From Cylindrobasidium torrendii FP15055 ss-10 (taxonomy: Eukaryota > Basidiomycota > Agaricomycetes > Agaricales > Physalacriaceae): a DNA stretch of 45,571 nt. The notes under the pieces were generated by a model. The model was not told the origin of the DNA, ran no database searches, and worked only from the letters and a program-made list of their open reading frames with translations. Each line of letters starts with the position of its first letter. Positions within the stretch are counted from its first letter, which is position 1. Positions 12,352-44,810 of this stretch are shown piece after piece. The translations under genes and the position numbers were made by a program. The DNA lies in the NCBI GenBank assembly GCA_000934385.1, contig KN880627.1, positions 1 through 45,571 on the forward strand, read 5' to 3'.

Positions 12352-13060
12352 CGTACTTTTGCTTGGAGAAAGGGAACCGCGGTGTTTTATTGCGAACCCT
12401 TCGTGCGATATTTATCCTTCCGTTCGAAACCCATGTCTTTGCGTCCATTCAGAGTGTTGAAACGACGAAGCTCCATACTGTGATATCCATGCGGTGCAAC
12501 GGTGGTGGTAAGTGTACAAAACGCAGGCAAAATCATGTACACACACATCACGGGTCAACGGTCCGATTCCCGATGCCTTCAACCTGGTAGCGAAGTCGTC
12601 GGTTTTCTTGCTGAGGTGTATCATGGCCTTCTGCCTTACAGTCTCGGATACTCCGCCAAGCCTTCTAACTTTCTCCGAACGTCTGACCATCCTCTACGCA
12701 ATACCGGCGCGATACGCTCTCCATTTCGTTCTAGTTACCAGCAACCGTGACGCTGCCGAAATTATCGAATGGAACTACCGCCAACCGGTTCCTCCGTTCG
12801 CTCCTCTTTGACTGCGCGACACGATTCCCTGGGCGGAAGCGCGAATGAAGAGCCGTAGGACATAGAAGATTCTTGCTCGAGAAGGCGCATGTGAAGACGG
12901 ACAGATGCGAGGTGCGTCAGATAAAAGGCATCCAAGCCCCACGCTGACATTACTGTCCTACTACCTACAGGCAGCCCTACACCACCTCTACCTGTGAAGA
13001 AACATGGCATGCATAGAACCGCACGACGAGCGCTGTCGCGACACTCCTGGATCCCTCCTC
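11500..13060. repeat. Left arm of a large diverged inverted duplication
   Basis: The reverse complement of this region aligns with about 18215-19900. Alignment covers the secreted protein gene, its promoter (ACGGAAGGATAAA followed by ATCGCACGA in both) and about 700 bp further upstream, for example CGCACCTCGCATCTGTCCGT in both arms. Arms are about 1.5-1.6 kb and the spacer about 5.2 kb. Noncoding parts are clearly diverged, so the event is not recent. Edges are approximate. Confidence 0.8.
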
Positions 13061-18274: not shown

Positions 18275-19900
18275 TAGATTTCATGGTGCCAAAAGACAGC
18301 TTGTAGTGCCTGTAGCAGAACAGTAGCCTATGTCAGTGTGGGGCTTGAATGGACTCTATCTGGCGCACCTCGCATCTGTCCGTCTTTACTGTTATCCACA
18401 CCAGAAATCACTTATGTCCTACGTGTCTCTATTGGCGCGTCCGCCCGGGGAATCGTGTCGTGCAGTCCAAAGGGAGCGAATGCGGAGACCAATTGGCAGT
18501 ATTTCCATTTGATAATTCCTGCAGCGGTTCTAACAACCAGAACAAAATAGAGAGTGTATTGCGCCGGTATCGCGTAGCGGATGGTTGTCGGCGGCAAGCC
18601 GCCGCCGCGAATGCGAACGTGATGCCGATCCTCGGCCGAGTGGCGTGTGGCGTGCGCACTCGGGGTCCTCAGAGAATATGAACAGGCTTGGCAGCGCCTT
18701 TCATAGAACGAAGATACTTAAACACAGAAGACGATGTGAGATACAGCTCGGCAAGAATACCGAAGACTTCACTACCAGATTGATGGAGTCGGTAGTCGGG
18801 CCGTTGAGCCGCAACATCTGCACATGGATTTCCCTATGTTTCGTACGCTCACCACCACCATTGCACCATATGGATGTTACACTATGGCGCTTCGTCGTTT
18901 CAACACACCGCGCGCGTTTCTGAATGGGCGGATAAACGACGAGGGCATCATGAGTTTCAAACGGAAGGATAAACATCGCACGATGGGTTCAATATAAGCC
19001 GCGATTCCTCTTTCCCACCTGCAAACCCATCATGGCTTTCCTTCCGCTCGTACTGGCACTCCTCCCTGCGTTTGTGGCCGCCATAAATGTCAGCTATGGT
19101 CCGCAGATAATCAAGAATGGAGACACACTGGTGCGTCTCCTGCTTTTGCGTATTTTCCCTTTTCTCATCTTGCCTAGTCCAAGCTGTACACACGCGACGT
19201 CAATAGCTCAGGCGACGGCGGCTGGCAGGACCCCAACACGGACTGGAACTATGGGTATGCGGTCTGGATGGGCGAAGCAGGCACCAATGTTACCAAGACA
19301 GCCTGGAGGTGAGTATTGCACATTCGCTTGCTACACAAAACTCATTTGATGTAGATACGGTGAAGACGATAGCACGACGGTTGCGTTCGAATACGACGCG
19401 TCAATTCCAAGTGCGCTGGATATGGAAATACGCACTCCCGAGGGCGCTCTCCCGCTCAACGGATACATCTATTCCACCGCACATGTTACCTACTCCGATT
19501 CGACCTCCGTGTCCAAGCGTGCTGAGGACTCTGAAGTCTTTGTACGTTCTCCCTTCATACTTCCCTTTCTTCCTTTGCTAACTCGCGGTAGAATGGCCCA
19601 TTCAACCAGATCCCGTGGTCCTCGCGCTACATTGCTGTCGAGTTCAACTACTGCCGCACGCCGACGACGTTCACCATTACCGCCACCGACGCGTCAGGCA
19701 AGTCGAACACGACAACTGGCAAGGAGCCGCGCCTCGATATCCCGAATGACTGGACATACCCACTTGACATTGTTTACACGAGTGACCCGGATGTCGGGGG
19801 CGCGACGGCGACGCTGCAGGGTGACCAACCGTTGCGGTATGCAATTGGGGAGGGTGAGGGAAAGCCAGAGTTGTACGCGTATTCGTACGTCGGGTTGTAC
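18215..19900. repeat. Right arm of the inverted duplication
   Basis: Aligns with the reverse complement of about 11500-13060. It contains the intact secreted protein gene at 19032-19927 and about 800 bp of upstream DNA. Edges are approximate because the arms have diverged. Confidence 0.8.
18993..18998 (+). promoter_or_regulatory. TATA-like box of the right secreted protein gene
   Basis: TATAAG lies 39 bp before the ATG at 19032. The left copy has a recognisably homologous but altered sequence at the same place (AATAAAA). Confidence 0.45.
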
Positions 19901-19927
19901 CCCTGCATCGAGCCGGACGACGATTAG
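19032..19927 (+). CDS. Secreted protein of unknown function, right copy
   Basis: Exons 19032-19130, 19178-19308, 19355-19541 and 19592-19927 give 250 residues. An N-terminal signal peptide (MAFLPLVLALLPAFVAA) is followed by INVSYGP. Four potential N-glycosylation sites are seen (NVS, NSS, NVT, NTT). Conserved blocks include WMGEAGTNVTKTAWRYGEDD, IPSALDMEIRTPEGALPLNG, FNQIPWSSRYIAVEFNYC and DVGGATATLQGD; the protein ends in CIEPDDD. A beta-rich extracellular fold is likely. The family is not recognised by me and no enzymatic motif is visible. This copy looks intact and probably represents the ancestral form. Its partner in the left inverted arm is about 80% identical in the matching part by eye. 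Confidence 0.85.
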
Positions 19928-20327
19928 TTCAAGGGGATGTGGACTCCTAATACACGCTTGTCTTGACCATCAAGATACACTGTCCCTCACTGTCCATCTT
20001 TGTGTTTGTGTTTGAATTGAGAATCAGTAAGGAGTATACCAACTCAGACTGTGACTTTCGAACCACCGGGTCCATCTCATCCTTTGTTAAACCTTCCATG
20101 AACTCCGTAGTCACCCGGGCGCTAATACTGCAATTCAATCATTCACATAGTCGCATTTGGACTGCGACTTCTTGGGCGTCCATGCGGCTTGTCACAGACT
20201 GATGCGTGCACCCTGGGCGCCTAAGTAGTCTTGTCTTGCACCATCACGGTCCCTCTGTTCTTTCAGCGCACGTTCTAACCCTTGCGTTTACCACCACTAT
20301 CGAGACATTTTTGGCACCGGGAACGAC
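19928..20327. other. Intergenic and promoter of DUF6535 copy 2
   Basis: About 400 bp with no gene. It carries the 19-bp string at 20069-20087 shared with the region upstream of DUF6535 copy 1. Confidence 0.5.
20069..20087 (+). promoter_or_regulatory. 19-bp motif shared upstream of both DUF6535 genes
   Basis: ggtccatctcatcctttgt, identical to 7343-7361, about 240 bp before the ATG at 20328. Confidence 0.45.
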
Positions 20328-22828
20328 ATGGCATCGAAGGACGCCGAGCCCAGCACCGAGGAGCCGCGCAGCGGTGTAGACAACCAACGTGACCAAGACG
20401 GTATGGACGACGACGAGCTGGTCACTCCGGGGGCACAGACCGCTCAGTCAGAAGGCTCGCACTCTGAGCAGGCATCGCTTGATCCTTCGGCAGAGGATGA
20501 AGAACTTCCGGTCGAAGAAGAGAAGCGTGAGCTTCATGAGCACTATAAATTGGGCTTTGCTGACAAACGTTGGTTGTAGCGCGTCGAAAAGGCTTATCTC
20601 GTGGGTCGAAACCAACCCCTGCGGCCTCTACGGCATTCAAAAAGACGAGGTTTGGCTTGGAGAACGACCAGACGAGTGGAAGGAAGAAAGAAAAAGAGCA
20701 GAACGAGCCACAGAACTTCTCAAGTGCGTCGTGCAATGCGTCTTATTTGCGTAGCACTCATGTAAGCTTATAGCGTTTGACTACACGACAAAGTATCCGC
20801 GCGATAAGCGCTACGAAGAACTTCACAACGAAGCTCGCGTCTGGCTGACGTATAACGACGAGGCTGCAATTTTCGATATGGACATGGTCGGCGAGGCCGC
20901 CGACAGTCTCGATATTCTTCTAGTCTTTGTAGGCATCCTAAGTCGGACTGGTTGTCTTGAATCTAATGGAACATATACAGGCTGGTCTATTCGCAGCGGT
21001 CCTCACAACATTCGTTGCGCAGACATCTCAGTCACTGTCGCCAGACAATTCTGCGGTCACCGTCTCGCTCCTTGTCGAGCTGGTAGCCGTGCAGCGCGCA
21101 GCAATCACAGGTTCATCGCTCTCGGACATTGCAGCTGCAGACGTTGCACCGGCCATCGATCGGACAAGCATCTGGGTTAATGCACTTTGGTTCACCAGCC
21201 TCGCACTGAGCCTGGCGTCCGCCTTGCTTGCAGTTTTGTCAAAGCAGTGGTTACGCCAGTACACCTCATTCATCGCTGGCTCGGCTCGGGAGCGCGCGCT
21301 AATCCGTCAATTCCGATATGATGGGATGGAGAAATGGGCGGTTCGAACCATCATTGGGCTTCTCCCTACAATTCTTCACCTTTCTCTCGCTTTTTTCCTG
21401 AGCGGACTCGTCGTTTTCCTTGCACCGCTACAGCGCGGTATTGCCATTTCGGTCGGAATCATCTCCGGGGCGCTTTTTATCGCATACATCTCCTCCATCG
21501 TCATCGCTGTGGTCCATGTCAAGTCTCCTTACCGCACAACGTTTTCCGATGTCCTCTCAACTACTCTTCGTTGGATCTTCACTGCCGTTTACCCCGTATT
21601 CGAGCGAAATTTCGGTTTACCTCATGTTGCGCTGGCGCCCACTACTCGAGCTGCTGAACAGATGTCGGCAATAAATCTAGAGGAAAAGACTGGAGCTGAG
21701 CAAGCCTGCCACGCTCTCGAGTGGCTTCATAACACGACAGGGAGTGTGTCTGCAAAAACCCTGATTATGGAATCCCTGTGCGCATTCCCCCTCAATTTCT
21801 TCGACGGAAAACAGGACGTATTCATCCGACTCAGCAATGGGTGTGGTCCGGACCGTCTCCAATTCTTGAACTGGGTGGACGAGCGGTCTGTCAATACAGT
21901 TCAGGAGTGGGAAATCCTGTTGAGAACCATTTGTTTGTCTGGCTATGGCCCGTTTCCGGTCTTCACGGACGTGGTCAGCCGCCGTTATGAATACAACCTC
22001 AACTCTGATGTGAGCCTTGCAGTGGTGTATTCTGCGTCCAGCCATGTCTATTACCCTGAGTCACAATATCCACAGAAAGGCAGTGATATCGAGTTTGACA
22101 CCCTGCGCGGCCTTTTCTCAGCATCTACTGCCCTCACTTTGAACCGTCTTTCACTCGACCACAAAAATAAGCCAGCATCACTTGTCACCACCTTCCTAGC
22201 CCTTGGCCGCGTTCAAGTTCCCCCCATAGTGTGGAATAGCCTGCTTCGTCAACGAGAAGGGCTCACATCCATGTCTCCGCATCACCTCGACAATTGGCCA
22301 TCACACATCAGCCTTCGAGACTATTTGAGCCTCGCAGATTTCGCCAAAATCTATCACTCTTTGCCTGCACGTACATCTGTTTTCCAAAATCCCATTGGCC
22401 TCTTTCAGTTCACATACCCCATCTTGGAGGAGCTCGGATGGTACCGTACAGACTCTGCGAACCACGGAAAGGACTTCCACAATGCCGTGAAACCTCTCGT
22501 TCTCCAACTTCCCGAGCCCTGGCGCCTCTCGGCCGAGGAGGAACTCGAGCCCTCACCGCCCGACGAGGACGCAGTCTGGGAGCCAGCCGTATACCCATCG
22601 GAATGGCCACCTTTCCCCGCTCCCACATGGGCCGAGGCATGGCAAGCTGCCGAGGACAAGTACAAAGCTGATGAGGAGGAGCCTGAGCGTGCGAGGAATA
22701 GGAAGGCGCTGGATGCTGCTGAACATGTGTCTGTGGGAAAGGCTTTGAGCAGCGGGATCCGAAAGCTTGTCCGTGGGAGGCTTTGCAGTGGTGATGAGTC
22801 GGTGGGTGAGACTGGTGGGATGGTTTGA
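20328..22828 (+). CDS. DUF6535 domain membrane protein, copy 2
   Basis: Exons 20328-20526, 20580-20723, 20774-20928 and 20981-22828 give 781 residues. The N-terminus is acidic and disordered (many E, D, S). The conserved core starts at VWLTYNDEAAIFDMDMVGEA and contains four predicted membrane helices (about residues 163-186, 232-255, 289-314, 320-345) with SKQWLRQYTSFIAGSARERA between helices 2 and 3. The C-terminal part ends in a Pro/Trp motif (EWPPFPAPTWAEAW) that also closes the kinase-like gene at 1691-3923, then an acidic/basic tail. The family is Agaricomycete-specific and of unknown function; membrane location is inferred from the helices. The core is closely similar to copy 1, while the C-terminal parts diverge strongly. 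Confidence 0.9.
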
Positions 22829-23415: not shown

Positions 23416-23446
23416 ACAATGGGGGGGGACTATTGTGCTGACAAAG
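23416..23446 (+). promoter_or_regulatory. HMG-box-like motif cluster upstream of pheromone 1
   Basis: ACAATG at 23416, ATTGTG at 23432 and ACAAAG at 23441 lie within about 30 bp, 155-185 bp before the ATG. HMG-domain regulators of fungal mating genes (Prf1-like) recognise ACAAAG/ACAATG cores. The role is inferred from motif and position. Confidence 0.4.
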
Positions 23447-23467
23447 CACAATCAACCTCTGCATTAG

Positions 23468-23473
23468 TATAAG
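23468..23473 (+). promoter_or_regulatory. TATA-like box of pheromone 1
   Basis: TATAAG, 133 bp before the ATG at 23601. Confidence 0.5.
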
Positions 23474-23600: not shown

Positions 23601-23789
23601 ATGGACGCCTTCTACGAACTCCCCTGCGTTATCCTCGAGGATGTTCCCGCAATTTCGCCCGCGGATGCCTCTGAGAAAGAGATGTTTGAGGTACCCCAAA
23701 TTAGTCGGTTCTCTCCCGACTACGACGGCGATGTGACCGACGCCGAGCGCCATGACGACTCTACATCATATACGTGCATTATTGCATAG
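23601..23789 (+). CDS. Lipopeptide mating pheromone precursor 1 (CaaX CIIA)
   Basis: A single-exon gene of 62 residues beginning MDAFYELPCVILEDVP, the same opening style as the other three precursors here. It ends in the CaaX box CIIA. An E-R pair precedes the final HDDSTSYTC segment, so the expected mature product is about nine residues with a farnesylated, carboxymethylated C-terminal cysteine. Basidiomycete precursors of this kind are short, acidic in the middle and CaaX-ended, and are secreted through an ABC transporter after prenylation; they activate STE3-type receptors of compatible mates. The gene sits 1.0 kb upstream of receptor 1 on the same strand. It differs most from the other three, which share TAYTC before or at the box and an E-H instead of E-R. 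Confidence 0.9.
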   Translation: MDAFYELPCVILEDVPAISPADASEKEMFEVPQISRFSPDYDGDVTDAERHDDSTSYTCIIA

Positions 23790-24568
23790 TCGGTGCGTGC
23801 ATCCCACTTCCCGCTGCCAGCAACTCACGAATATATCCAGGCTATACACACGCCCAAACCACCATTAGACTGCTTGTTCCCTCGCCATCGCCCGCGAATG
23901 CCACCTGGCGTGACACTTGCAAGGGCAGTGCTTATGCTTTCCATCCCGGTACATTTCCTTCACCCTCTCCTGCGCCAGAAGTTGATTCCTTATAGATATC
24001 ATTCCTCTATATGCCTCTCTACATTTCTATACGAATCCGTATCCCTGCTTCGAGAACCCATAGGTCCAGCGAGACTGGACCTCTACGCTCCTTATGCCAC
24101 GATACGATACCCATTCACGACATATCTTTATCCAAGGTATTTATGTACATCTTAGCTTGTACTTTCTGGGCCCAATTGGCGTCGATAAATGGAATTGTTT
24201 GTACCAATAACCCAATATTCTTAAACGCAAGCGATACATGTGGTGCAAACTAATTCCGAGTAATGGGAGTGCTGTGGCGAAATTTTCTGTAAGCTTACTT
24301 GAGATGGAAAAATGGGAAGGATATGGCCAGATGAGATTTTTGCGCAAAGCTTGACTCTGAGTCTGGTAATGCGGGGTCCTATTCTTCGACTGATGGGGAA
24401 ATCCTTTCTCACGGTCCCAGCCTGCTTCATCCTCGAACTATTCTTCCAAAGTCCTGTCTGAAATTTCTTCAAAAATGGCACAGAGGACTTTCGATAAGTT
24501 AGCAAGATTACTGAGCTCGCAGGATGTATGGAATCAAGCGCTTGGGTGCGCTTTGGAGACACGTGGCA

Positions 24569-24660
24569 ACAATGGGCTTATGACGTCACACGACAAACAA
24601 TGGCCAATTGCCAAACACGAGGACGAACAATCGGCCGTCCCTCGCTTTGTCCTCCATTGT
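24569..24660 (+). promoter_or_regulatory. HMG-box-like motif cluster upstream of receptor 1
   Basis: Four cores occur within 92 bp: ACAATG at 24569 and 24597, CTTTGT (ACAAAG on minus) at 24645 and CATTGT (ACAATG on minus) at 24655. They precede a TATA box at 24677 and the receptor ATG at 24793. The density suggests control by an HMG-domain mating regulator; binding is inferred. Confidence 0.45.
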
Positions 24661-24676
24661 TCCTTTGACCGACATG

Positions 24677-24682
24677 TATAAA
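24677..24682 (+). promoter_or_regulatory. TATA box of receptor 1
   Basis: TATAAA, 116 bp before the ATG at 24793. Confidence 0.55.
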
Positions 24683-24792
24683 TGCTTTGAGGATCCGGAC
24701 CGGGCTTCTGCCTCCCTTTTCTCCTCTAACGACGCCGACCCACGTCCTTTCACGACTGCCGCTCATCCTTTCTCGACGGCTTATACGACACA

Positions 24793-26475
24793 ATGGCCGA
24801 CGCTTACTACCCTTTGTTCCAAATTTTTGCCGTCCTGGCCATCGTTTGCATTCTCGTCCCGCTTCCATGGCACCTTCAAGCGTGGAATACCGGCACTTGC
24901 ATGTTCATGATATGGGTCGCGCTTGCCATTCTTAACTTCCTGGTCAACACGCTCGTCTGGAAGAATAACGTAGCGGATATGGCGCCCATCTGGTGTGATA
25001 TATGTGCGTGCTTTGTCGCGCGCGCTTTTCTTTCATACTGACCTTTCATGCTTTGCAGCTACACGTATCACCTTGGCCTCCAGTGTCGGGATCAGCGCGG
25101 CCTCTCTATGCATCAACCGCCGCCTGTATAAGATTGCAGCCATCCAGTCCGTTTCCTCCAGCCGCGAAGACGTGCGTCTGCGCCTTTTCTTTCATGTCCA
25201 GTGCTCATGATGCTTGCAGAGGCGACGCGACATCATTGTGGACTTGGTAATCGGCGTTGGCATCCCGCTTCTCCAACTCCCGGCCCACTTCGTTGTCAAT
25301 GGACACCGCTATGATATCGTGGAAGATGTTGGGTGCATGGTCGCGACCTTCAACACTCCCCCCGCGTACCCTTTGACGTTCCTCTGGCCCAATGTCCTAT
25401 GTCTTGTGTCTGTCATGTATTCCAGTATGTGGCAGCATTCTATCTCTCATTGCCAGTCGCTGACAGATGCCATAGTCCTCACCATCCGGGCGTTCCTCCA
25501 GCGTCGCGCGCAGTTCAACCAATTCCTATCCAGCACGTCAGGCATCAACCGTAACCGGTACTTCCGCCTGCTCGCTCTCGCCTCGGTCGAGCTCCTGGTA
25601 AACATCCCCGTCTCAAGCTTCGGCCTTTACCTCAACACTACCCGTGGTTCAATACACCCGTGGGTTTCCTGGGAAGACACGCACTACGACTGGTTTGCGG
25701 TCCGCCAAGTCCCTTCGTTCGTCTGGCGCGCGGACTCTAGCATGGTCACCGTCGTCGAGCTGCAAAGATGGGCTCCAGTCTTCATTTCCTTCGTATTCTT
25801 TGGCTTTTTCGGCTTCGCCGACGAGGCCAGGAAAAGCTACAAGGCCGCTCTCACACGCGTCGGGTGCGTTCATTCCAGGTCTGTTGAAAGCTCTTGTACT
25901 GAACCTCTTTCAGTATACTTTCGAAGCAGTCTAACAAGAAAAATCTGCAACTGCCCTTCCACAACAGCAAGTTTATTCGCACTGTTGGTGGCAAGCCATC
26001 TTTCAGGAAACCTGTCCGCACCGACTCCTTGGCTTCATCCACGGTTGTCTCGTCGCCCACCAGCAAAATATCGCCTTCCGAGATAGACGCAAGCTTCGGT
26101 GCCCACAAACGCTCCGGCTCAGTCGACTCTATCGCCTGGGCAGAAAGCACTTATGCACCGCCTGCGACATGGCCCACATGCCCGGCGCCCCGACCGACAT
26201 CCGTCAGCTCTGTCAGCGCATGCGTCTCATCCCCGTCTGTCGATAACATCCCTCTGTCTCCTATCGAACACTCTATTCACACCATACCGTCGCTGAGCGC
26301 ATTCCCCGAACCACCAACAATTTCGGACGCACCTGGTCGCCCCGAATCACAACGCCGCATCCAGGATCTTGTGCAAGTAACAAGAATACCGGAATCAAGC
26401 GAACACGTCCTACATCTGGTTGAGCCAGAACGAGCGCGCTCTCCGGTCGCGCGGCCATTCTCGACGCTCTACTAG
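24793..26475 (+). CDS. STE3: STE3-like pheromone receptor 1 (GPCR)
   Basis: Exons 24793-25003, 25059-25171, 25220-25424, 25476-25863 and 25914-26475 give 492 residues; the junctions keep frame. The protein has the layout of the fungal STE3 class (class D GPCR): seven membrane helices within the first 300 residues, then a long Ser/Pro-rich cytoplasmic tail. Landmarks are the LPWHLQAWNTGTC turn after helix 1, WCDISTRI before helix 3, INRRLY at the end of helix 3, TIRAFLQRRAQF in the third cytoplasmic loop, and FGFADEARKSYKAAL after helix 7. It detects farnesylated pheromones at the plasma membrane and signals through a G protein and MAP kinase cascade to control nuclear migration and clamp fusion. 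Pheromone genes lie on both sides, so this is the likely mating-type-specific receptor of the locus. The intron at 25425-25475 is a multiple of three and could be retained, adding residues in the third loop. Confidence 0.93.
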
Positions 26476-27313
26476 TTTGCGTCGGCCACCTACCTATCCA
26501 TCCACAGATATACACTTCGCATTTCTTGATTCTTATCTTTATTTCATTTTCGTTCGACGTTCATTCATTCTACTATCACGATTTGGGCTTGCCCGTTGGG
26601 TGCACACGTACGACTACACACCATTCCTTCTTGTATTATACCTGGTTTTGGGACTGACTTTGCTATGACTTCGTCTACTCTCGAGTAGTCATTTGTAACA
26701 CCATAATGATAGAATACTTTGATGAATGACATGATACACATTGGCCTGTAAAACGGTGGACATCCAGCAAAGTCGACATTGCCAGTTCCGAGACGCAATC
26801 TGTCTTGCTCGCAACACTTGCTCTTGTCAGATGTTTTCTGAGTGAGCACTGCTTCGAGTGCACAAAAGGACGTCCAATACCAGCATGGCCCCATACATAC
26901 TGGTACAAAGAAGCGTCAAAATAACCATGGTAGGCGCTGCAACGGAGTGTGCGGGCTAATGGACAATAGCTGGACAATAGGACACCACTGTGGCGTCCAC
27001 AGGTCCTTCACCTCAGACAGGTCTATCAAGTCTGGAACATCCCATCGAACCTTCGAAGTCTCACAATTACTGTGTATCAACTTTTTCTTTGATTCCTTTC
27101 GACTTTCTACGAAGCTATTCACAACTTCATTATTTAAACCGATTGTGATACAATCGATCGAACAAAGAGCCTTCATTGCAACAGCGATGCAGCACATGAA
27201 CAATGCCCCCACAGCGCGTCTATATAATATCCCGGTGGCTCTTCGAGCCCTTCAGAGATTTCATCCTTCGTTTCACCACCACAACCTCAAATCACTCGAT
27301 TCTACGCAGTACA
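26476..27313. other. Intergenic between receptor 1 and pheromone 2
   Basis: No gene seen in about 840 bp. The last 150 bp are the pheromone 2 promoter, with ACAAAG at 27162, ACAATG at 27200 and a TATA box. Confidence 0.5.
27162..27227 (+). promoter_or_regulatory. Pheromone 2 promoter: HMG-box-like sites and TATA box
   Basis: ACAAAG (27162-27167) and ACAATG (27200-27205) are followed by TATATAA (27221-27227), 93 bp before the ATG at 27314. The arrangement resembles that upstream of receptor 1 and pheromone 1. Confidence 0.45.
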
Positions 27314-27505
27314 ATGGACGCTTTCAACAACCTTCCATGTGCTATCTTCGAGGACATTCCGGCGTCCGAAGGTGGGCTTTTGAAGCACCAGTCAGAAAAA
27401 ACTAGCCTTTTCAACCTTGACGCCGAACACCACAATGCAGAGAGTGCACTCGCCGACATGGAGCACCGTGACGAAGGTACGGCGTACACCTGCACGCTCA
27501 TGTAG
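27314..27505 (+). CDS. Lipopeptide mating pheromone precursor 2 (CaaX CTLM)
   Basis: A single-exon gene of 63 residues, MDAFNNLPCAIFEDIP at the start and CTLM at the end. The E-H pair precedes RDEGTAYTC, giving a predicted nine-residue mature lipopeptide. It is the only one of the four ending in Met; CaaX boxes ending in A or M are both typical farnesyltransferase substrates. The start is the first ATG; the frame is open further upstream, but that part overlaps the TATA box and is not expected to be translated. It lies 0.84 kb downstream of receptor 1 on the same strand. Confidence 0.92.
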   Translation: MDAFNNLPCAIFEDIPASEGGLLKHQSEKTSLFNLDAEHHNAESALADMEHRDEGTAYTCTLM

Positions 27506-28254
27506 AGCGTCTCACGATGCCCATGTCACTTATCTATTTGCACAGTAACTTTTATTCATATTTTATTCTTCGACTTCTACCCAAACGGTGAGAGTGTCTG
27601 TCACACTCGGCCACCGAACCCTCCCTCTTGCTTTCGACTTCTCTGGGAGGGCTTCAAAGCAATCTATTCTACTGGCGACATCCTTGCTAGTTCTATCACA
27701 ACGAAATGTATACGTATGGAATCTTTCTATGGATCCTTCACCTGTCTGCCATTCAAGCCACGCATGGCACCGCTGGATGCATCAAACTTGGATACGCATT
27801 TCATTCGGTCGAGTGCCCAATTCCTATGGCTTTTACGACCTCGCACAGGTAGGCTTCAACATTTTCCTATGGTTTTTCAGTCTGCTATCAATGATTTGGG
27901 CGCACTTGTGACTCGGCGTCTGTCATTCGTGACTCAGGTATAGCTGGATGGAAACCCCGGGTGGGAGTCTCATATTGCCGGAGTTGTCGGGTTGAGACAG
28001 GCTGATTCAGCAACAATAACCTGAAATGTGAATTTCACATATGCTGTGAAATTGTGCCTTGCAGAAAAGGTATAAAAGGCATGTCTCTTGGGCGTTGTGC
28101 TTCTGCCCCCCCTCACCAAACCCCATAACACCCTCACCGAATTTGCATCGCTACTGCGAAGCTACTATCGTCACCCTCACGCTTCGCGTGCCCCCGCGCA
28201 CCCCCGCGCATTGTAACACCACCCGCACCACACCCTACCCATTGTTGTACTATT
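27506..28254. other. Intergenic between pheromones 2 and 3
   Basis: No gene seen; an open frame at 27588-27911 has no recognisable features. A small inverted repeat (TGTGAA T TTCACA, 28027-28039) lies just before the TATA box of pheromone 3. Confidence 0.5.
28071..28077 (+). promoter_or_regulatory. TATA box of pheromone 3
   Basis: TATAAAA, 184 bp before the ATG at 28255. A pyrimidine-rich leader of about 180 bp follows. Confidence 0.55.
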
Positions 28255-28452
28255 ATGTCAGGCATCGATAGCTTTAGCGAGCTGCCTTGCGCCATTTTCG
28301 AGGACGTTGCTTCCCTCGCGCCCGACGTCGCTGTCGCGGACGCCAAGGTCACCATGGATGTCCCTACCACCCTCATTCTCGGTGACGCCGAGGACACCAT
28401 CGACAGGGAGCACAGAGACGGAGGCACCGCCTACACCTGTTGCATTGCCTAG
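28255..28452 (+). CDS. Lipopeptide mating pheromone precursor 3 (CaaX CCIA)
   Basis: A single-exon gene of 65 residues, MSGIDSFSELPCAIFEDVA at the start and CCIA at the end. The E-H pair precedes RDGGTAYTC, so the predicted mature peptide differs from that of precursor 2 at one residue (G for E). The CaaX box has a second Cys at the a1 position. Its opening (MSGID) and general sequence make it the closest relative of precursor 4, which lies 1.3 kb away on the other strand. Confidence 0.92.
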   Translation: MSGIDSFSELPCAIFEDVASLAPDVAVADAKVTMDVPTTLILGDAEDTIDREHRDGGTAYTCCIA

Positions 28453-29717
28453 GCCCGAAGGGTGCGTTCATCGTCGTCCTCTCTCCCTTTCATCCAGTAC
28501 TGACCATGGCTCTTTAGGCATCCACTCATTTAGTCGAAACCAAACCAAACACAACACGCTGCCGTTTTTATTTCCCCCCTCGCGTTGTATGTACCATAAC
28601 CTATTGAAACCTTCTATTACTCGCAGCCGTTAGAGTCGGTCGTGCGCGACTCTCGATGCGGCGGCATGGCCCACTTTTTTTTACTCTTCTACTGGCCATG
28701 CCGATATTCTATCGCCATCTTATCTATTGATAACCCAACCCTCATTCCATAACTAGCTAGGACCACCCTCCTTCACTACACGCCGTAGCTAGGCCAAACC
28801 TGTGTATGTGTACAATCCAAAGTCATCTGTTCGTGTAAATCGTCCGAAAAAGGATAAATGAATCTGAGGGTAACGAAGTTCCCTGCGAACACGCTGTGCG
28901 GTGGCCCGGGCTAGTCTGCCATAAACCGTCGAACTGGCCCTTCTGCTAAGCGTAAAGTGCCCAAATGCGCAGTCATGCGGTCCGATACCGGCTTAGTTGT
29001 GACAATGCACAATCTACTTGGAACTTATAGGCCATGAGGGACCCAAAAGTAGGGAGCGCGGGGTTACATCGAGAGGCACCGCATGCCTCCGTCGTCGTCT
29101 CTGGGCAACAAAAAGCCAAAGATGCTCCATTGCTTATCTCCAGCGCGCCGCCAAGTGTCTGCTGACTGAAATATTGGGAAAATCGAGGACCTTTCCGCGC
29201 TTAAAAGACGTAAGTATTATCAAGAATTTATTCTGGTCTGCTCAAATGTCGCGATGCGAAGACGGAAAGAGGGGCGCTGGAGTCTCGTTACCGCCAGTAA
29301 CTCATCGATAGAGTAACGGGGCACAGAAAAGGCCTGCCCTCAGAGCCGCTACTCTCGGAGATCGTCGCGGCATGCTTTTTTTGACGAAGAGCCTCTGTCT
29401 GTGACTCTGTGCGCTATGAATTGTTATGTTTTAATTCAAGGCATTTAATACGGAGGGCATTGGATGAAGAGGCGGCGTATGATTGTGGGCCGTATGGCAT
29501 AAAAGCATAAGCAACGACACCGCCTATGTGGTGCACGGAGCGAAGGATATGTGGCGACGGCTAGGGTCAAGTAAGGGGAGCATATGGTTCCAATGAGGGA
29601 TAAAGAGGGTGCATAGTATGAGAATAACGGCCTCAAATCGGTGTTGGTAGAGCGCAGAGCAGCTGACAAGATCATGAGTGAGCAAGCCGGATGGAAATTG
29701 ACGACGAATGCGCACGC
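28453..29717. other. Intergenic between convergent pheromone genes 3 and 4
   Basis: About 1.26 kb with no supportable gene; includes the 3' ends of both pheromone genes. Confidence 0.5.
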
Positions 29718-29918
29718 TTAGGCGATGGAGCAGGTATATGCAGTTCCTTCGTCGATGTGCTCCATTTCGACAACGGATGTTGATGAACCGCCTGGAAGAG
29801 TGGTTGGAATACTGGTGGTAGCTCTGCTGCAGTCTGCAGAAACAGCGTCGGCCGCAACGCCAGCAACGTCTTCGCGGATGACGCAGGGAAGGCTCTCGAA
29901 GTCGTCAATCCCAGACAT
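29718..29918 (-). CDS. Lipopeptide mating pheromone precursor 4 (CaaX CSIA)
   Basis: A single-exon minus-strand gene of 66 residues, MSGIDDFESLPCVIREDVA at the start and CSIA at the end. The E-H pair precedes IDEGTAYTC, giving a predicted nine-residue mature lipopeptide in which Ile replaces the Arg of precursors 2 and 3. It is convergent with precursor 3, suggesting an inverted duplication followed by divergence. A TATA-like box lies about 130 bp upstream. Confidence 0.92.
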   Translation of the reverse strand: MSGIDDFESLPCVIREDVAGVAADAVSADCSRATTSIPTTLPGGSSTSVVEMEHIDEGTAYTCSIA

Positions 29919-31852: not shown

Positions 31853-31857
31853 AACAT
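31853..31857. repeat. Target site duplication, left
   Basis: AACAT, repeated perfectly at 33109-33113 on the far side of the LTR element. Confidence 0.85.
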
Positions 31858-32020
31858 TGTAAGAAAACCTCCTTTTACGCACGGCAGAACTTGAACAACG
31901 TAGTATTCAGTGCTGCTAGGCGACAGTAGGAGGAAAAAGACTAACTACTACGGGTAATTGATCGAGATACATAGACCCCGTAGGTGGCGCAGAGGCGCCG
32001 GTAAATACGAAACCCTTACA
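31858..32020. repeat. Left LTR
   Basis: 163 bp, TGTAAG...CTTACA, identical to 32946-33108. Confidence 0.9.
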
Positions 32021-32540
32021 TACCCCCCAACTAGAATCCACCATAGGATTCTACAACCAAAACCAAAGAACATTCACGTAGAATGATGGGAATGTTGACC
32101 ATGGTTCATTGAAGTTGGGAACGGCAATTAGTTGGATGGCTTCACCCTAAATGGTGAAGCAATTAAGTTTGATTGTTGGACATAAAGTCTAACAAGTATT
32201 GATACAAGCACGTCTTCCATTGGAAGTGCGGTGCTAAGTATGTTGTTGCTATGGTCGGAGACGCAATGAGCAACGTAGCCCTGCACGGCGCACATGTATG
32301 CGGGGAGCGCAGCAATTTCTTGGGCAGTACAGCAAACCGAATTGGCTACTTGTACTTGTTTTGTCGGCCGTGCGCTTGGACAGCGCTTGAACGACTCGGG
32401 ATATATTGCCGCCGGGATTGAACCTGGGATGGCACTGATTCTGACTCGAAATTGACGTCATGATCGTAGCACGAGGCTATCGATCGAAAATTTGCATGAT
32501 CCCACTTGACTTGTTCGAGAAGTGGGAGAAGAATTGGGTC

Positions 32541-32710: not shown

Positions 32711-32945
32711 TAGATTTGGTGCTTCGTCTTGTATAAGAGCGAAGCGGGGATTTGAGCGGACACGACAAGGTATCCTAGCGAATTGTCGAAAGTACTGCGT
32801 ACTAACGTGCTCGTCGCCTAACGAGTCGGGATTGTGCAGACACCTCGAGGGTATCCTAGGCGATGTATTGCTAGTGCGGGGACTAGTCGCTCGTCGCCTG
32901 GCGAGCTCGGATTCAGCACCGAACTAGGAGTATAGTTCAAAAAAG

Positions 32946-33108
32946 TGTAAGAAAACCTCCTTTTACGCACGGCAGAACTTGAACAACGTAGTATTCAGTG
33001 CTGCTAGGCGACAGTAGGAGGAAAAAGACTAACTACTACGGGTAATTGATCGAGATACATAGACCCCGTAGGTGGCGCAGAGGCGCCGGTAAATACGAAA
33101 CCCTTACA
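32946..33108. repeat. Right LTR
   Basis: 163 bp, identical to the left LTR; followed by the target duplication AACAT at 33109-33113. Confidence 0.9.
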
Positions 33109-34215
33109 AACATCGTGGTAGTCCCGGATGTGAAGGCACAGGCCTCGCTCGCGGCATGAACGCCCCCGCGTTCAATTTTCGTTTCTTGCGGCGCTGCTCT
33201 TGGACTAGCTCTGCGAGACGAATCTATGGCAAATAAGTTATACCGGGCGTTTGTTTGAATCAGGCGGGGCATCAGGTGAAATACCGTGATGTCCCTAAGC
33301 GATTGGATGGACAGCATAGACTCACCTCCATACGCTTGAGTTCAATCTTCTGCTGGATCCAAAACCAGAACGGACAAAAGGAAAGGCGCGAGTAAGCGTG
33401 AGTACCTTCAGCAATTCGATCTCGTCATCGCGGTCGACGTCAACTTTGAAGAGCTGGTCTGTCTAGCTCACTCTCACTATCCGAGCCCAGAACTTCGATA
33501 ACTTGATGCTTGGACGGCGCCTTGCGTTTCTTGGATGGTTCCGTCTCCCCTTGCGTTCATTGTGCGGATTTTTCTCTTCTTTTGCGGGCGGTGGAGTGGG
33601 AGCAGGTGCGATGCCACGAGCTTGGAGGTCTTCTACCCAGCTGCATGAGAAGAAAGGCAATACAGAGCAAAGAATACGGACCAAGTGGTCGGTAGCAGAA
33701 AACGATGGTGATCAAATGTTCGACGTCCTTTTCGTGAAGGATACGCTGACTGTTCCACAAACTTAGCTGTTCGAAGAGCTTGGATCAGAGTCAGAGACGT
33801 ACCGTGGCGGACGTGACGTGTGAGAACGTCCGCGACTGGACCAGGTTGTGCCAGGTAATCGGATGTGAGGCTGGAATGTATCCGGGAGTACATTGATGCT
33901 CCAGTGCTCAAGGCAAATTTCTCCTTCCTCTGGTAGGGGCGTGGCTACACGCAGCGCGTCTACTTGGTCGTTGGTACATCGGTCCAGCTGGCACGATTGA
34001 AAAGTGCACATTTCTATAATATAAACTCGCAGCTTTGTCCTTTCCGCACTGTAGCACGGCTCAGGAAGTTCTCGAAGAAGCCTTAGGCGCCAGTGTCCAG
34101 CGTGGGGAGCATGATGAAATCCATTACACTGCATTATCGCACAGTCTAAAAACTTGTCGTACATTGGGATCAGAGCTGAACGGAGAACAGGTTCACAACC
34201 GTTCAAGTCTTCCAT
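33104..34215 (-). pseudogene. Decayed DUF7918-like gene, 3' end interrupted by the LTR element
   Basis: Minus-strand exons matching the paralogues are exon 3 (ending at 33803, with GEICLEHWSINVL), exon 4 at 33682-33761 (LITIVFCYRPL), exon 5 at 33406-33632 (EDLQARGIAPAP), the 27-bp exon at 33326-33352 (QKIELKRME) and exon 7 at 33104-33223 (LAELVQEQRRKKRKLN). Exon 5 is broken: a one-base loss in the G run at 33547-33550 shifts the frame just before SKKRKAPSKHQVIEV, and a second shift is needed near 33441-33450. Exons 1 and 2 are not clearly found; the frame up to 34215 is only weakly similar. The reading frame of exon 7 runs into the right LTR, and its TAA stop (33104-33106) is LTR sequence, so the insertion cut off the original end. 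The intact paralogue lies next to it at 34224-35715. Confidence 0.75.
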
Positions 34216-34223
34216 TTGAACTA

Positions 34224-35715
34224 CTAGCTCAAGTTCCCTTCGAGCGTCGTCTTCTCCTTCTTAACAGGTGTCATCCTCTCCTTCTTAATGGGCGTCGCTT
34301 TCTCCTCCTTGACAGGCGACGCTTTCTCCTCCTTGATAGGCGACGCTTTCTCCTTCTTGGTAGTCGTCGCCACCTCCCTCGCAGATGCCACCAATGCGCG
34401 CGTCGCGCCCTGCGACCCAGACGCCTCCCCGTTCAATTTCCTCTTCTTGCGATGCTGCTCCTCGAGGTCCGCGAGGCGAAGCTGAAGTGCGCATTAGTGA
34501 GAGCATTGGAATAGCGATGCAGGGAATAGAGAGCGGTTCAATGTGGCTGGGACGAGTTCAGGGATGCCACAACTTCAAGTCCAGAATTCGGAAAGTAGCG
34601 TGAGACAACTCACTTCCATGCGCTTTATCTCTAGTTCGGCCTATAGGGAAGGGTCAGAAAGGTCGGGAAGGCTGGCGTGGGTGAGAACAAGTACCCTCAG
34701 CCGGTTAATCTCAGCCATATCATCGTCGCCGCCGTCTTGGCTGCCGCTGCCGCTAGCGGCCGGCTCGCTCTCCGTGTCACAAATGTCGATAACTTCGGGC
34801 ACGGGTGATGCCCTACGTTTCTTGAGAGGCCTGGAAGGTTTCTGCGGTCTTGCCTCTGCCGTGCGCTTATCTTCATTCGTGGGAGGTGATGTAATTGGAC
34901 GAGGGGGAGCCGGACGAAGAGCGATACAACGGGCTTGTAGGTATTCTGCAGGAATGGATCAGAGAAGGGATAAAAGGCCAAAGAGACGAACCGAGTGGGC
35001 GGTAGTGAAAAACAATCGTGAGTAAACGCTCAGCGTCTCTATGTAGATTAATCGAAGCTGTAGAAGGCGGAAAAACTTGCTCTTCTCCGAAACTGACGTA
35101 AAAGTCAGTTCCATGATGTCGCACGGTTGTCAATATTCACCATGCAATATGGGGGACAGGCTTTGCGCTCTTGTGAAATATTTCGACAGGGCTGACGACA
35201 AACGTTCTGGGTGGTCCCCTGAGGCGCTGGAGCTTCTCAACTCCCCAATGCTCAATGCGAATATCCCCTTGTTCTGAAGGGACCTTGGAACTAAGAAGCG
35301 TGACATCGTCTACCTCACTTAGTAAAAAGAAACGAAAATCAAACAGAGATTTACCTGTCACAACAGTCTTCGCAAACAAAAGCGGACAGCGGGTAGTGGC
35401 TGAGGTTATAGCTCCGTCGCAGAGCAAGGTGCGTGTGTCGTGCTTCCATCTGAAGGAGTTTTGGATGGCTCTTCCATCTACACGAAACAAAGCTCGACTG
35501 TGATAGTCAGCGCCATCTCTGCGAAAACGAATCTGGAACTCCTATATTTGGAGTTAGGGGTGTTCAGAAATGGGCGTCTCAGTCACTACCTTCCCAGCCT
35601 CCGAAGGAATCCAACACGACAATTCGTTCTTTACAGTATTAAACTTTGTCAAGTACTCGGGCAAGTCGGCGCCGTCGACAACAACACTGGCGGTATAACC
35701 ATCGTGACGAACCAT
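34224..35715 (-). CDS. DUF7918-like protein, copy A
   Basis: Minus-strand exons 35590-35715, 35355-35541, 35141-35309, 34992-35092, 34695-34945, 34614-34640 and 34224-34481 give 372 residues with all joins in frame. The N-terminal domain has ASVVVDGADLPEY, CWIPSEAGK, DYHSRALFRVDG, EQGDIRIEHWGVEKL, FGEEQVFPP and LLTIVFHYRPLEYLQA, matching the beta-sandwich-like fungal DUF7918 domain of unknown function. An acidic linker, a 9-codon exon (AELEIKRME) and a basic coiled-coil region (EEQHRKKRKLN) follow. The C-terminus holds five 8-residue repeats of the form K-[KE]-E-[KR]-x-[ST]-[PT]-x. Four relatives lie in this window, two here (one dead) and two at 39.4-42.9 kb. The lysine-rich basic segments suggest a nuclear protein, by inference only. 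Confidence 0.87.
34236..34360. repeat. 24-bp coding minisatellite
   Basis: About five imperfect 24-bp units in the last exon of DUF7918-like copy A encode 8-residue Lys/Glu/Ser-Pro repeats. The number of units could vary between alleles. Confidence 0.7.
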
Positions 35716-36246: not shown

Positions 36247-37143
36247 ATGCGTGTATCCCTTTCCAGTGGCCTCTTGGGTCTGGTCGCGGCTGTACATGCC
36301 CAGACTGTCTACCTAGCGGGCGATTCGACAATGGCAGCCACTGGTGCGGCTGATGGAGATACTGCCGGTACGCCTTCATGTCTTTTCTTCTCTTATCCTA
36401 CCTAGATACTTCAAAGAATCAACGTTTTCTCACATCCCACACAGGTTGGGGTGCATACCTCACAAACTACATCTCCCTCTCCGTCGCCAACAGAGCCATC
36501 GCCGGACGCTCCGCACGCAGCTACACACGCGATGGCCGCTTCGACCAGATCAAAGCCCTCGTCAAATCCGGCGACTTTGTCGTTATCGAATTCGGCCATA
36601 ACGACGGCGGGAGCCTCGCCACGTCCGACAATGGCAGGTCAGATTGCGAACCGGTGAATGGAGACTACAGTACGACATGCACCACGACATACAAGTGCGT
36701 CTTCTTCCTTCCTCCTTCCTCTCAAACCTCAAGAATTACACACTAACTCGAATTTTGCTCGCAGCGGCGTAACCGAAACCGTCCTCACATACGAAAAATA
36801 CCTCGCCAACGCAGCCAAAGCCTTCAAAGCCCTCGGCGCAAACGTCATCATCTCCTCCGCCACGCCCAACAACGTCTGGGAGACCGGCACCTTCACATAC
36901 TCCGCCAACCGCTTCGTCACCTACGCGCAGGACGCCGCCACCGAGGCTGGAGTCACCTTCGCCGACCATGGCATATACACTGCGTCTTTGTACAAGAACC
37001 AAGGCGCGGATGTCGTTAATGCGTATTATCCGAATGATCATACGCATACGAGTCCGGCTGGAGCGAATGTGGTCGCACGGGCGTTTGTGTTGGCTGTTGA
37101 AGCGACGAGCTCGACGTTGAATAACTACATTACACATGATTAG
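36247..37143 (+). CDS. Secreted rhamnogalacturonan acetylesterase-like SGNH hydrolase (CE12)
   Basis: Exons 36247-36367, 36445-36694 and 36765-37143 give 249 residues. A signal peptide ([18 protein letters not shown]) precedes [12 protein letters not shown], the block I serine motif of SGNH hydrolases. Block II is seen as [12 protein letters not shown], block III as EFGHNDGG, and the catalytic Asp-His pair as [11 protein letters not shown] near the C-terminus. The size and motifs fit fungal rhamnogalacturonan acetylesterase of carbohydrate esterase family 12, which removes acetyl groups from the pectin backbone outside the cell. Neither neighbour is related. The gene looks intact. Confidence 0.92.
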
Positions 37144-43237: not shown

Positions 43238-44810
43238 TTACACGATATCGGGCGAATGGTGGAGAGGAATGGTGGATGCGCGACGCAGCGAGGAGATTTC
43301 GATATCCAGGGCGTCGCTGGGGCGGCGCTCGCTTGTAGGAGACACGGCAGCAGGCGCCGGAGCCACGAGATATGGACTCGTAGGCTCGACCTCCTTGGAT
43401 GCGGGCTCTGCTAGTGCGCCGCCAGCATCGACGAAGTCTACACCACCGAACGAGACATCTCCTCCGAAGGTCGAGATAGGACCGAAGGATCTATCCTTCT
43501 CGGTAGTAGATATGTCGGTGAAGGAGTCCAACGTATCGCGACGTTTGGGTCGTGACCTCGAGGTCGGCTCGCGAAGATAGACGGGCACACGATTGCCCGC
43601 GCTGTTGAGCATCGTACCCTGGGATGAACTAGACATAACCCGTCAGAACAGCGAGAAGAGGCAGGAAAAGTCAAAAACGAACCTTCCCATACTCGAACCC
43701 CAGAACTTCCCCGACGACACACCAATCTTCGTAGTCACAAACGACAGCGCCTTCCAATACTTCTTCCTACTCTCCTCCGCGAACCCGAACAGCGCAAAGA
43801 AGAGGAACGCAGCGAGAGGGTTGTACCACCGCTGTACCTCAAGGAATGCGCCTAGAGGGAATGCATGCCAGAAGATCGCAGGGAACTTGTCGATGCGGTT
43901 ATAGTCGAGATGCACGATGTCCCAGCTTCCCCAAGGCCCAACGTTCCGCGCATTGACGACGAGCATGACGAGGGAAAGAGGGACGACGCAGAGAACGTCG
44001 GTGCCAGCCATGACCATAAGCCGGATGTAGCGTCCGCCGCTGAGGTTGCTGTGGGAAGACAGCAACTCTTTGAACTGGTGGCGACGTCGGTTGAATGCTA
44101 ATACCGTGCGGACTGGGTGAGATTGGGATTAGGTTGTTTTGAAGGTAGAGATGATGCAAAGGGCGTACTGGAGTAACTCGCTGAGACGAGACCAATGACA
44201 AGAGGCCAGGCTTGGAATAGGAAGAGCGTAGGGACAGAGTCTATCATGGCAGGAACGCAACCGATGTTCTCGTATACCCCATATCGATTCGCGGTCACCA
44301 CGTATGCTAAAGTATATTAGACGACATGCCCATGCACAGTAAACAGAGTACTCACCAATGGCGACCTGGACGAGAGGAACCACAGTGCACAAGAGAATAT
44401 CAAATATCATCCCACGTCGCTTGTCCGTCGGGGAATTCGTGACCGTATCCGAGGACGCAATGAAATATAGACGGCGGTTGATGACGAGCGAGCATATAGC
44501 GATGGACACGTTCTCCGCGATAATAATTCGTGTCGAGAGATCGCACCAGCCCGGTGCCCAGTCGATGATATTGTGGTTCCAGACGATGGAGTTGATGAAC
44601 GCGTTAAGGCAGCCTGCGCCTACCCAGAACATGTACATGCACGTTCCCACATTCCAAGCTAGACAATCAGCTCAGCACACCCACTCGACAAAGGTAAAGC
44701 AATGGAGACGCACCTTGGAGATGCCATGGAAGCGGGATAGCACACGCCATGAAGCCGAGAAACGCGAACACCGAGAACAGCTCGTTCGGAGGATAAAGGT
44801 CTGCTGCCAT
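43238..44810 (-). CDS. STE3: STE3-like pheromone receptor 2 (GPCR)
   Basis: Minus-strand exons 44714-44810, 44356-44658, 44169-44306, 43683-44112 and 43238-43628 give 452 residues with all joins in frame. Seven membrane helices are predicted. Landmarks shared with receptor 1 are IPLPWHLQAWNVGTCMYMFW, WCDLSTRI, INRRLYFIA, SIRTVLAFNRRRHQFKELL and FALFGFAEESRKKYWKAL; the cytoplasmic tail is Ser/Pro-rich with a basic SRSRPKRRD. Intron positions differ in part: this gene has an intron right after the HLQ turn, absent from receptor 1, and lacks the one after WCD(I/L). The third-loop intron is shared. No pheromone precursor is seen within about 13 kb, so it could belong to a second mating sublocus, or be one of the non-mating-type STE3-like receptors often found near agaric MAT-B loci. 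Confidence 0.92.

What the first reader, a model, noticed from the sequence alone, without database searches (positions are those of the whole stretch)
23601..29918. MAT-B type mating locus: four pheromone precursors around one STE3 receptor
Seen: four single-exon frames of 62-66 codons, each with a MDAF or MSGID opening, an acidic middle, an ER/EH pair and a C-terminal CaaX (CIIA, CTLM, CCIA, CSIA), within 6.3 kb of a complete STE3-type receptor gene. Known: this layout defines basidiomycete pheromone/receptor loci. Such short genes are usually missed by automatic annotation.
Basis: partly seen in the sequence, partly recalled or inferred. Interest (0 to 1): 0.9.

Follow-up and report, generated by a model that had tools for sequence, protein, structure and literature searches.

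The report
Mushroom pheromone and receptor mating locus
This is an ordinary mushroom mating-compatibility locus, one receptor gene with four small pheromone genes that do not appear in the protein databases searched, and a second such locus lies on another piece of the same genome.

Summary
In detail: four single-exon ORFs (62, 63, 65, 66 codons; CaaX ends CIIA, CTLM, CCIA, CSIA) flank a complete five-exon STE3 receptor. The window is a whole contig of Cylindrobasidium torrendii FP15055 ss-10, Physalacriaceae: the receptor model is 100% identical to its public protein. Word-based protein searches with gene 3, and with a profile of all four, returned no pheromone.

Two corrections. A second complete STE3 gene lies at 43238-44810, minus strand, probably a non-mating receptor-like gene. 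And contig C122 holds another receptor with seven pheromone ORFs of the GG-(x)-C kind. The window's tails (ERHDDSTSYTC, EHRDEGTAYTC, EHRDGGTAYTC, EHIDEGTAYTC) resemble the peptide at Flammulina velutipes PR-a (ERHGQGMAYTC); C122's resemble PR-b (ERAGDPTFRGGAC).

Verdict: new member of a known kind, a PR-a-type B sublocus with four pheromone genes where Flammulina has one. Enrichment of upstream ACAAT(G/A) sites at both subloci is a modest extra.

The parts
23601..23789 (+). Pheromone precursor gene 1 (62 aa; predicted cut near ER; tail ERHDDSTSYTC-IIA)
   Evidence: weak PF08015 match, E 0.11, below cut-off
24793..26475 (+). STE3 pheromone receptor gene 1; exons 24793-25003, 25059-25171, 25220-25424, 25476-25863, 25914-26475 (492 aa)
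   Evidence: gene model; PF02076 E 1e-105; 100% identical to the C. torrendii public protein P0001; seven hydrophobic segments by a crude window scan of its first 310 residues
27314..27505 (+). Pheromone precursor gene 2 (63 aa; tail EHRDEGTAYTC-TLM)
   Evidence: no Pfam match
28255..28452 (+). Pheromone precursor gene 3 (65 aa; tail EHRDGGTAYTC-CIA)
   Evidence: no Pfam match; no candidate in the protein database
29718..29918 (-). Pheromone precursor gene 4 (66 aa; tail EHIDEGTAYTC-SIA)
   Evidence: no Pfam match
43238..44810 (-). Second STE3 gene, probably a non-mating-type receptor-like gene; exons 44810-44714, 44658-44356, 44306-44169, 44112-43683, 43628-43238 (452 aa)
   Evidence: PF02076 E 3.6e-96; sister of the C181 receptor in the tree; no ORF with the pheromone leader or strict tail near it; no ACAAT(G/A) from -300 to -50
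24569..24682 (+). Upstream region of receptor 1 with three ACAAT(G/A) sites (from -224, -196, -138) and a TATA box (-116)
23416..23473 (+). Upstream region of pheromone gene 1 with two ACAAT(G/A) sites (-185, -170), one ACAAAG (-160) and TATAAG (-133)

Best explanation
The block 23601-29918 is one sublocus (PR-a type, equivalent in kind to Flammulina velutipes PR-a) of the B mating-type locus of the agaric Cylindrobasidium torrendii. Each small gene encodes a precursor that should be farnesylated at the CaaX cysteine, trimmed and carboxymethylated, and cut near the ER/EH pair to release a lipopeptide of about ten residues ending in [AS]YTC. The secreted peptides should activate the STE3 receptor of a mate carrying a different allele of this sublocus, starting nuclear migration and dikaryon formation, and should not activate receptor 1 of their own sublocus. 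A second sublocus on contig C122 (one receptor, seven pheromone ORFs) works in parallel. The second STE3 gene in the window is probably a receptor-like gene outside mating-type determination. Shown here: gene structures, motifs, class resemblance, receptor kinship, enriched upstream sites. Inferred: processing, secretion, allele specificity, the self/non-self rule, and that the two blocks belong to one B locus.
For: Four paralogous CaaX ORFs far above chance, with a protein-coding substitution pattern. Complete PF02076 receptor between them. Receptor 1 groups with Flammulina velutipes and Armillaria receptors at 100/99, and with Flammulina at 99/93, within a 28-row group (90/99, inner order open) that also holds Coprinopsis Rcb3 and Pleurotus B receptors. 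The tail class ([AS]YTC after ER/EH) matches the published F. velutipes PR-a mature peptide ERHGQGMAYTC, while C122's seven resemble the PR-b class. Searches of the genome with genes 3 and 1 ring at the four window genes; the only other hits, two on C15 at E 0.013, have no CaaX end. The upstream regions of 13 pheromone and receptor genes at the two subloci hold 21 ACAAT(G/A) sites against about 4 expected in GC-matched windows (0 of 20,000 draws as high).
Against: No transcript, peptide or allele data. Three of the four precursors have no Pfam match and the fourth is below cut-off, though F. velutipes FvPp genes scored E 0.0013 to 0.45. No homologue in the protein database, so conservation between species rests on one published peptide. 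Only one strain is available. Linkage of C197 and C122 is unknown. Four of the 13 promoters have no ACAAT(G/A) site, including pheromone gene 4, and the shorter words ACAATG and ACAAT are not significant after correction.
Confidence: 0.87

Rival explanations
1. The cluster is a fixed, non-allelic pheromone/receptor set (a former B sublocus that no longer decides mating type), and only the C122 sublocus is discriminating.
For: Only one strain is known here, so polymorphism cannot be seen. The F. velutipes authors suggest that PR-a might be inactive in one cross. Three of the four predicted tails differ from one another by only one or two residues, as if redundant.
Against: Receptor-like genes outside mating are published as lacking pheromone genes, whereas this one has four. 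Receptor 1 groups with mating receptors, not with four of the other STE3 genes of this genome (C181, C344, C54, C159), though three of those sit on long branches. It shares the upstream site enrichment of the C122 genes.
Confidence: 0.1
2. The C197 and C122 blocks are two alleles of one locus from a dikaryotic or mixed assembly, not two subloci of one haploid genome.
For: They lie on different contigs, so linkage is not shown. In F. velutipes one sublocus can hold receptors of different main groups.
Against: The strain suffix ss-10 suggests a single-spore isolate (inference). The receptors share only 49% identity and the pheromones are of two classes that coexist as PR-a and PR-b in F. velutipes. 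Shared flanks were not looked for, so this is not excluded by test.
Confidence: 0.04
3. The four small ORFs are chance CaaX frames near a receptor gene.
For: Short ORFs ending in CaaX occur by chance: mean 1.76 of 40-80 aa per shuffled window.
Against: Four share a leader and a tail not found elsewhere in the window. The strict rule averages 0.05 per shuffle. Relatives of one another at E 1.4e-14 to 1.9e-6. Third-position bias.
Confidence: 0.01

Closest known systems
Flammulina velutipes PR-a (matBa) sublocus: FvSTE3.1/FvPp1 and FvSTE3.4/FvPp4 (PMC5100862, PMC3140503; passages seen)
   Same: One STE3 receptor with a pheromone whose predicted mature sequence is ERHGQGMAYTC, same length and ending as the window's four tails; a second sublocus in the same genome with GG-x-C pheromones. 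Same family, Physalacriaceae: looked up for C. torrendii, recalled for Flammulina.
   Different: One pheromone gene there, four here. Receptor 1 is 56% identical over 90% of its length to the nearest Flammulina protein (A0A1B2U701), whose sublocus I could not confirm. FvPp1 carries an extra Trp after CaaX; none of the four does here.
F. velutipes PR-b sublocus (FvPP3/FvPP6, ERAGDPTFRGGAC)
   Same: Resembles contig C122 of this genome: one receptor, pheromones with ER and GG-(x)-C.
   Different: Two pheromone genes there, seven ORFs on C122. A different pheromone class from the window's.
Coprinopsis cinerea B locus (Rcb3 receptors)
   Same: Receptor 1 falls in the broad group that holds Rcb3.
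   Different: Receptor identity 51-56% to the four Rcb3 proteins listed. The subgroup layout of the Coprinopsis locus is recalled, not tested.
Hypsizygus marmoreus P/R locus (PMC8686365; passages seen)
   Same: Receptors, receptor-similar genes and CaaX pheromone genes together, as with the second STE3 gene here.
   Different: There three receptors, two similar genes and three pheromone genes lie in 22 kb; here one receptor and four pheromone genes in 6.3 kb, the second STE3 gene 17 kb on.

Membership tests
Basidiomycete PR (MAT-B) mating locus | STE3-type receptor gene, complete PF02076 | tested here: met
   Profile positions 1-292 of 292, E 1e-105; five exons
Basidiomycete PR (MAT-B) mating locus | One or more 40-100 aa pheromone precursors with CaaX end close to the receptor | tested here: met
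   Four, in a block of 6.3 kb with the receptor
Basidiomycete PR (MAT-B) mating locus | Charged pair (ER/EH) 10-15 residues from the C-terminus | tested here: met
   ER, EH, EH, EH at residues 14 and 13 from the end in all four; criterion
Basidiomycete PR (MAT-B) mating locus | Precursors match Pfam PF08015 | tested here: not met
   One at E 0.11 below cut-off, three without match. Not treated as defining: FvPp2 scored E 0.45, and only 1 of the 11 genes of both subloci passes the cut-off in the whole-genome search
Basidiomycete PR (MAT-B) mating locus | Alleles differ between mating types and segregate with them | not testable with these tools
   Only one strain held
PR-a type sublocus as in Flammulina velutipes | Pheromone tail of the class ER/EH...[AS]YTC | tested here: met
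   All four against published ERHGQGMAYTC
PR-a type sublocus as in Flammulina velutipes | On the same chromosome as a PR-b sublocus with GG-x-C pheromones | tested here: inconclusive
   Such a block exists on C122 but linkage is unknown because both are separate contigs
Non-mating-type receptor-like gene (STE3.s), for the second STE3 gene | STE3 gene without pheromone genes next to it and outside the mating-receptor clade | tested here: inconclusive
   No ORF with the strict pheromone rule within 13 kb in the window, but the contig ends 0.8 kb upstream; sister of the C181 receptor, 68% identical, outside a 41-row group (91/98) of mating-type-like receptors, whose reference rows were chosen by likeness to receptor 1

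The most novel reading that the evidence does not exclude
Mushroom pheromone and receptor genes of both B subloci are co-regulated through clustered ACAAT(G/A) elements about 85-265 bp upstream, bound by an HMG-box pheromone-response factor, and this element separates mating-type STE3 genes from receptor-like STE3 genes by sequence alone. Together with four pheromone genes, three of them with near-identical mature peptides, at one sublocus, it would give a sequence-only test for which STE3 genes decide mating type.
Probability: 0.35. Interest if true: 0.4.

Novelty: new member of a known kind. Interest (0 to 1): 0.22.

Why it matters
It supplies four pheromone genes that the protein searches did not return and seven more ORFs on C122 (not searched there), suggests that the two-sublocus PR architecture of Flammulina exists in another genus, and offers a simple candidate promoter element that could help tell mating-type receptors from receptor-like ones. 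It changes no basic idea about mushroom mating.

Tried and rejected
Weak hits to pheromone gene 3 on contig C15 (2 hits, E 0.013) were read and rejected: the frames through them do not end in CaaX. The PF08015 hit on C156 (E 1.05) was rejected: long open frame, no CaaX end. Loose CaaX frames not counted as pheromones: in the window 4839-5051 - (strict rule, ends CISD), 19791-20015 + and 11162-11293 - (loose rule), and 43256-43414 + and 42727-42816 - near the second STE3 gene, which carry a loose CaaX only; on C181 a 44-aa frame at 1078-1212 + ending CFLN with an ER, 14 kb from that receptor and without the leader (L029); on C122 a 93-aa frame at 49633-49914 - ending CGAP (L021). They look like chance; I did not test them further.

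A linked homeodomain locus was looked for: no Homeobox_KN or homeodomain match lies on C197 or C122; candidates on C21, C26, C55 and others were not resolved into a MAT-A locus. The Mating_N search rang nowhere, controls included, so it says nothing. M3 peptidase matches (MIP candidates) lie on C102 and C104 and PBD matches (CLA4/STE20 candidates) on C264 and C331, none on C197 or C122. A solved structure of a relative was sought by sequence; the best of 4 listed chains had E 0.058 and none is a pheromone receptor. Structure prediction was not run because the full-length Pfam match already settles the receptor family. No tRNA and no Rfam family was found in the window. My guess midway that the window's divergent pheromones made it something other than MAT-B was dropped.
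Full report
WHAT IS THERE. The window is the whole of contig C197 (45,571 bases) of a 29.3 Mb genome in 494 contigs. Four single-exon ORFs end in CaaX: 23601-23789 + (62 aa, CIIA), 27314-27505 + (63 aa, CTLM), 28255-28452 + (65 aa, CCIA) and 29718-29918 - (66 aa, CSIA). They share a leader D-x-F-x-x-LPC-x-I-x-ED and a tail E-[RH]-x-D-x-x-T-[AS]-YTC-aaX. A six-frame scan of the window for pieces of the leader and tail finds only these four. Between them lies a STE3 gene with five exons and four GT-AG introns, full-length PF02076 at E 1e-105, and seven hydrophobic segments by a crude scan.

CHANCE. A strict rule (40-80 aa ORF, E[RH] followed 5-11 residues later by CaaX) is met by 5 ORFs in the window, against a mean of 0.05 and a maximum of 1 in 100 dinucleotide shuffles. 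Four of the 5 are the genes above; the fifth, 4839-5051 -, ends CISD and has no leader, so it is probably chance. A looser rule is met by 7 against a shuffle mean of 0.28. In 16 other stretches of the same genome the strict rule is met 7 times, all in the 3 stretches of contig C122, and 0 times in the other 13. Pairwise among the four genes, differences at codon positions 1, 2, 3 number 23, 27, 51 in the tail and 19, 18, 43 in the leader, with 27 and 32 synonymous codon differences. The middle of the precursors is barely alike (0 to 11 identical of 30 to 33), while the leader (8 to 10 of 14) and the last 15 residues (6 to 11 of 15) are kept. This is what selection on the processed peptide and on a precursor signal would leave.

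WHOSE GENOME. The 492-aa receptor model is 100% identical to the public STE3-domain protein of Cylindrobasidium torrendii FP15055 ss-10, on a contig of 45,571 bases. The species is in Physalacriaceae, Agaricales. Next best of the 120 listed are Flammulina velutipes (56% over 90% of the query) and Armillaria novae-zelandiae (60% over 74%). Pheromone gene 3 found no candidate in the protein database, and the profile of all four found 19 candidates of which none scored E 10 or better. So the receptor has a public protein and the four pheromones appear to have none. The search reaches only relatives that share short exact words.

SECOND RECEPTOR. A second complete STE3 gene lies at 44810-43238 on the minus strand (five exons, 452 aa, PF02076 E 3.6e-96). 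It is 43% identical to receptor 1 and 68% identical to a STE3 gene on contig C181. In a tree of 46 rows (7 from this genome and 39 that I picked from the 120 listed homologues of receptor 1) it pairs with C181 at 100/99, outside a 41-row group (91/98, not starred) that holds receptor 1, the C122 receptor and all the reference rows. The references were all found by likeness to receptor 1, the root is at the midpoint, and the tool warned of long branches for C159, C54, C344 and C122, so this tree cannot name its family. No ORF that meets the strict rule lies near it in the window, but the contig ends 0.8 kb upstream. I take it as a receptor-like gene of the kind published in F. velutipes, which lack pheromone genes.

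SECOND SUBLOCUS. A six-frame search with PF02076 places STE3 genes at seven spots: two in the window and one each on C122, C181, C344, C54 and C159 (models of the seven-helix part of the last five; C159 is very divergent). Around the C122 receptor (54548-55588 for that part) lie seven further pheromone ORFs, starting at 47791 -, 51050 -, 52937 -, 53555 +, 57109 -, 58504 + and 59460 +. All seven carry ER and a GG-(x)-C-aaX end. In the fetched stretches around the other four STE3 genes (28 kb of C181, 20 kb of C344, 30 kb of C54, 25.5 kb of C159) no such ORF was found; one loose frame, C181:1078-1212 +, ends CFLN and lacks the leader. Pfam PF08015 sees only two of the eleven genes in the whole genome, one of them above its cut-off, and a search with one C122 pheromone found only itself and two other C122 genes.

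COMPARISON. I saw passages, not the whole text, of two papers on F. velutipes. Its PR locus has two subloci 177-181 kb apart. PR-a pheromones FvPP1 and FvPP4 have the predicted mature sequence ERHGQGMAYTC (FvPP1 with an extra W), PR-b pheromones FvPP3 and FvPP6 ERAGDPTFRGGAC (PMC5100862; PMC3140503). The window's four tails, ERHDDSTSYTC, EHRDEGTAYTC, EHRDGGTAYTC and EHIDEGTAYTC, are of the first class, C122's seven of the second. Receptor 1 groups with the Flammulina and Armillaria proteins at 100/99, and with Flammulina at 99/93. I could not confirm which Flammulina sublocus that protein comes from. A search for the letters AYTC with pheromone and receptor found 11 papers, of which 10 were listed; by title PMC5100862 was the only one on a fungus. 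A search for C. torrendii with pheromone and mating found 6 papers, none by title on its mating loci; one for Cylindrobasidium with mating and tetrapolar found 2, neither by title on it. The genome paper (Floudas 2015) was seen only in a reference list.

HOW IT LIKELY WORKS. Inferred from the family: farnesylation at the CaaX cysteine, removal of the last three residues, carboxymethylation, a cut near ER/EH, export, and binding to the STE3 receptor of a mate with another allele. Own peptides should not activate receptor 1. Three of the four tails differ from one another by only one or two residues in the eleven before the aaX, so they may be partly redundant; gene 1 differs more and is the one that begins ERH, as in Flammulina.

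UPSTREAM ELEMENTS. An open k-mer scan of the region from -300 to -50 of 13 genes (11 pheromones, 2 receptors, from both subloci) gave TATAA in 12 of 13, and, among 7-mers, GAACAAT in 6 of 13 against a background of 0.019 (Bonferroni 1.6e-4), AACAATG in 6 of 13 (0.0027) and ACAATAG in 5 of 13 (0.0028); CAAAGCG, TCAAAGC and CCCACCC also fell below 0.05. Among 6-mers ACAATA passes (0.025) but ACAATG does not (1.1), and the 5-mer ACAAT does not (6.9). Sites of the form ACAAT(G/A) number 21 in the 13 regions; 9 of 13 have at least one and 7 have at least two. In GC-matched draws the mean is 4.0 and none of 20,000 reaches 21; 24 of 20,000 reach 9 genes. With TATAA also required the mean is 3.7, again none reaches 21, and 15 of 20,000 reach 9 genes. 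Among the five other STE3 genes, 1 of 5 has a site; the start codons of four of these are approximate. By sublocus: 7 sites against 1.4 expected in the window, 14 against 2.2 on C122. Genes without a site are pheromone gene 4 and three on C122. Smuts use ACAAAGGGA, bound by the HMG-box factor Prf1 (PMC3248468, passages), and Cryptococcus uses an element bound by the HMG factor Mat2 (PMC3744442, passages). That ACAAT is a typical HMG-box core is recalled. Two searches for such an element in mushrooms listed 6 and 2 papers, none by title on point, which is not proof of absence from print.

VERDICT. It is a new member of a well-known kind.

Noticed in passing
C122:47666-59621 (L028, L021, L022): Probable second B sublocus of the same genome: one STE3 receptor with seven CaaX pheromone ORFs of the GG-(x)-C kind.
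   Followed up: yes
window 11501-12950 and 18330-19886: An inverted duplication in seven matching pieces, 81-87% complementary, 5.4-7.7 kb between arms; frames in both arms have no Pfam match.
   Followed up: no
window 8264-10204 and 20942-22828: Two DUF6535 genes in direct orientation 12.7 kb apart, 71-75% alike in DNA in the matched pieces, one ending 0.8 kb before pheromone gene 1.
   Followed up: no
window 31853-32023 and 32941-33111: A 171-base repeat, 98% identical, whose ends look by eye like short inverted repeats (TGTAAG...CTTACA); three further copies at 82-90% on C490 and C117. Possibly a small mobile element next to the pheromone block.
   Followed up: partly
window 35140-35541 (-), 39498-39938 (+), 41578-41931 (+): Three frames that look related by eye (...DYHS...DG...WKH...), without Pfam match, with DNA repeats around them.
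   Followed up: no
window 36354-37143 (+): GDSL lipase/acylhydrolase matches in two overlapping frames, probably one spliced gene.
   Followed up: no
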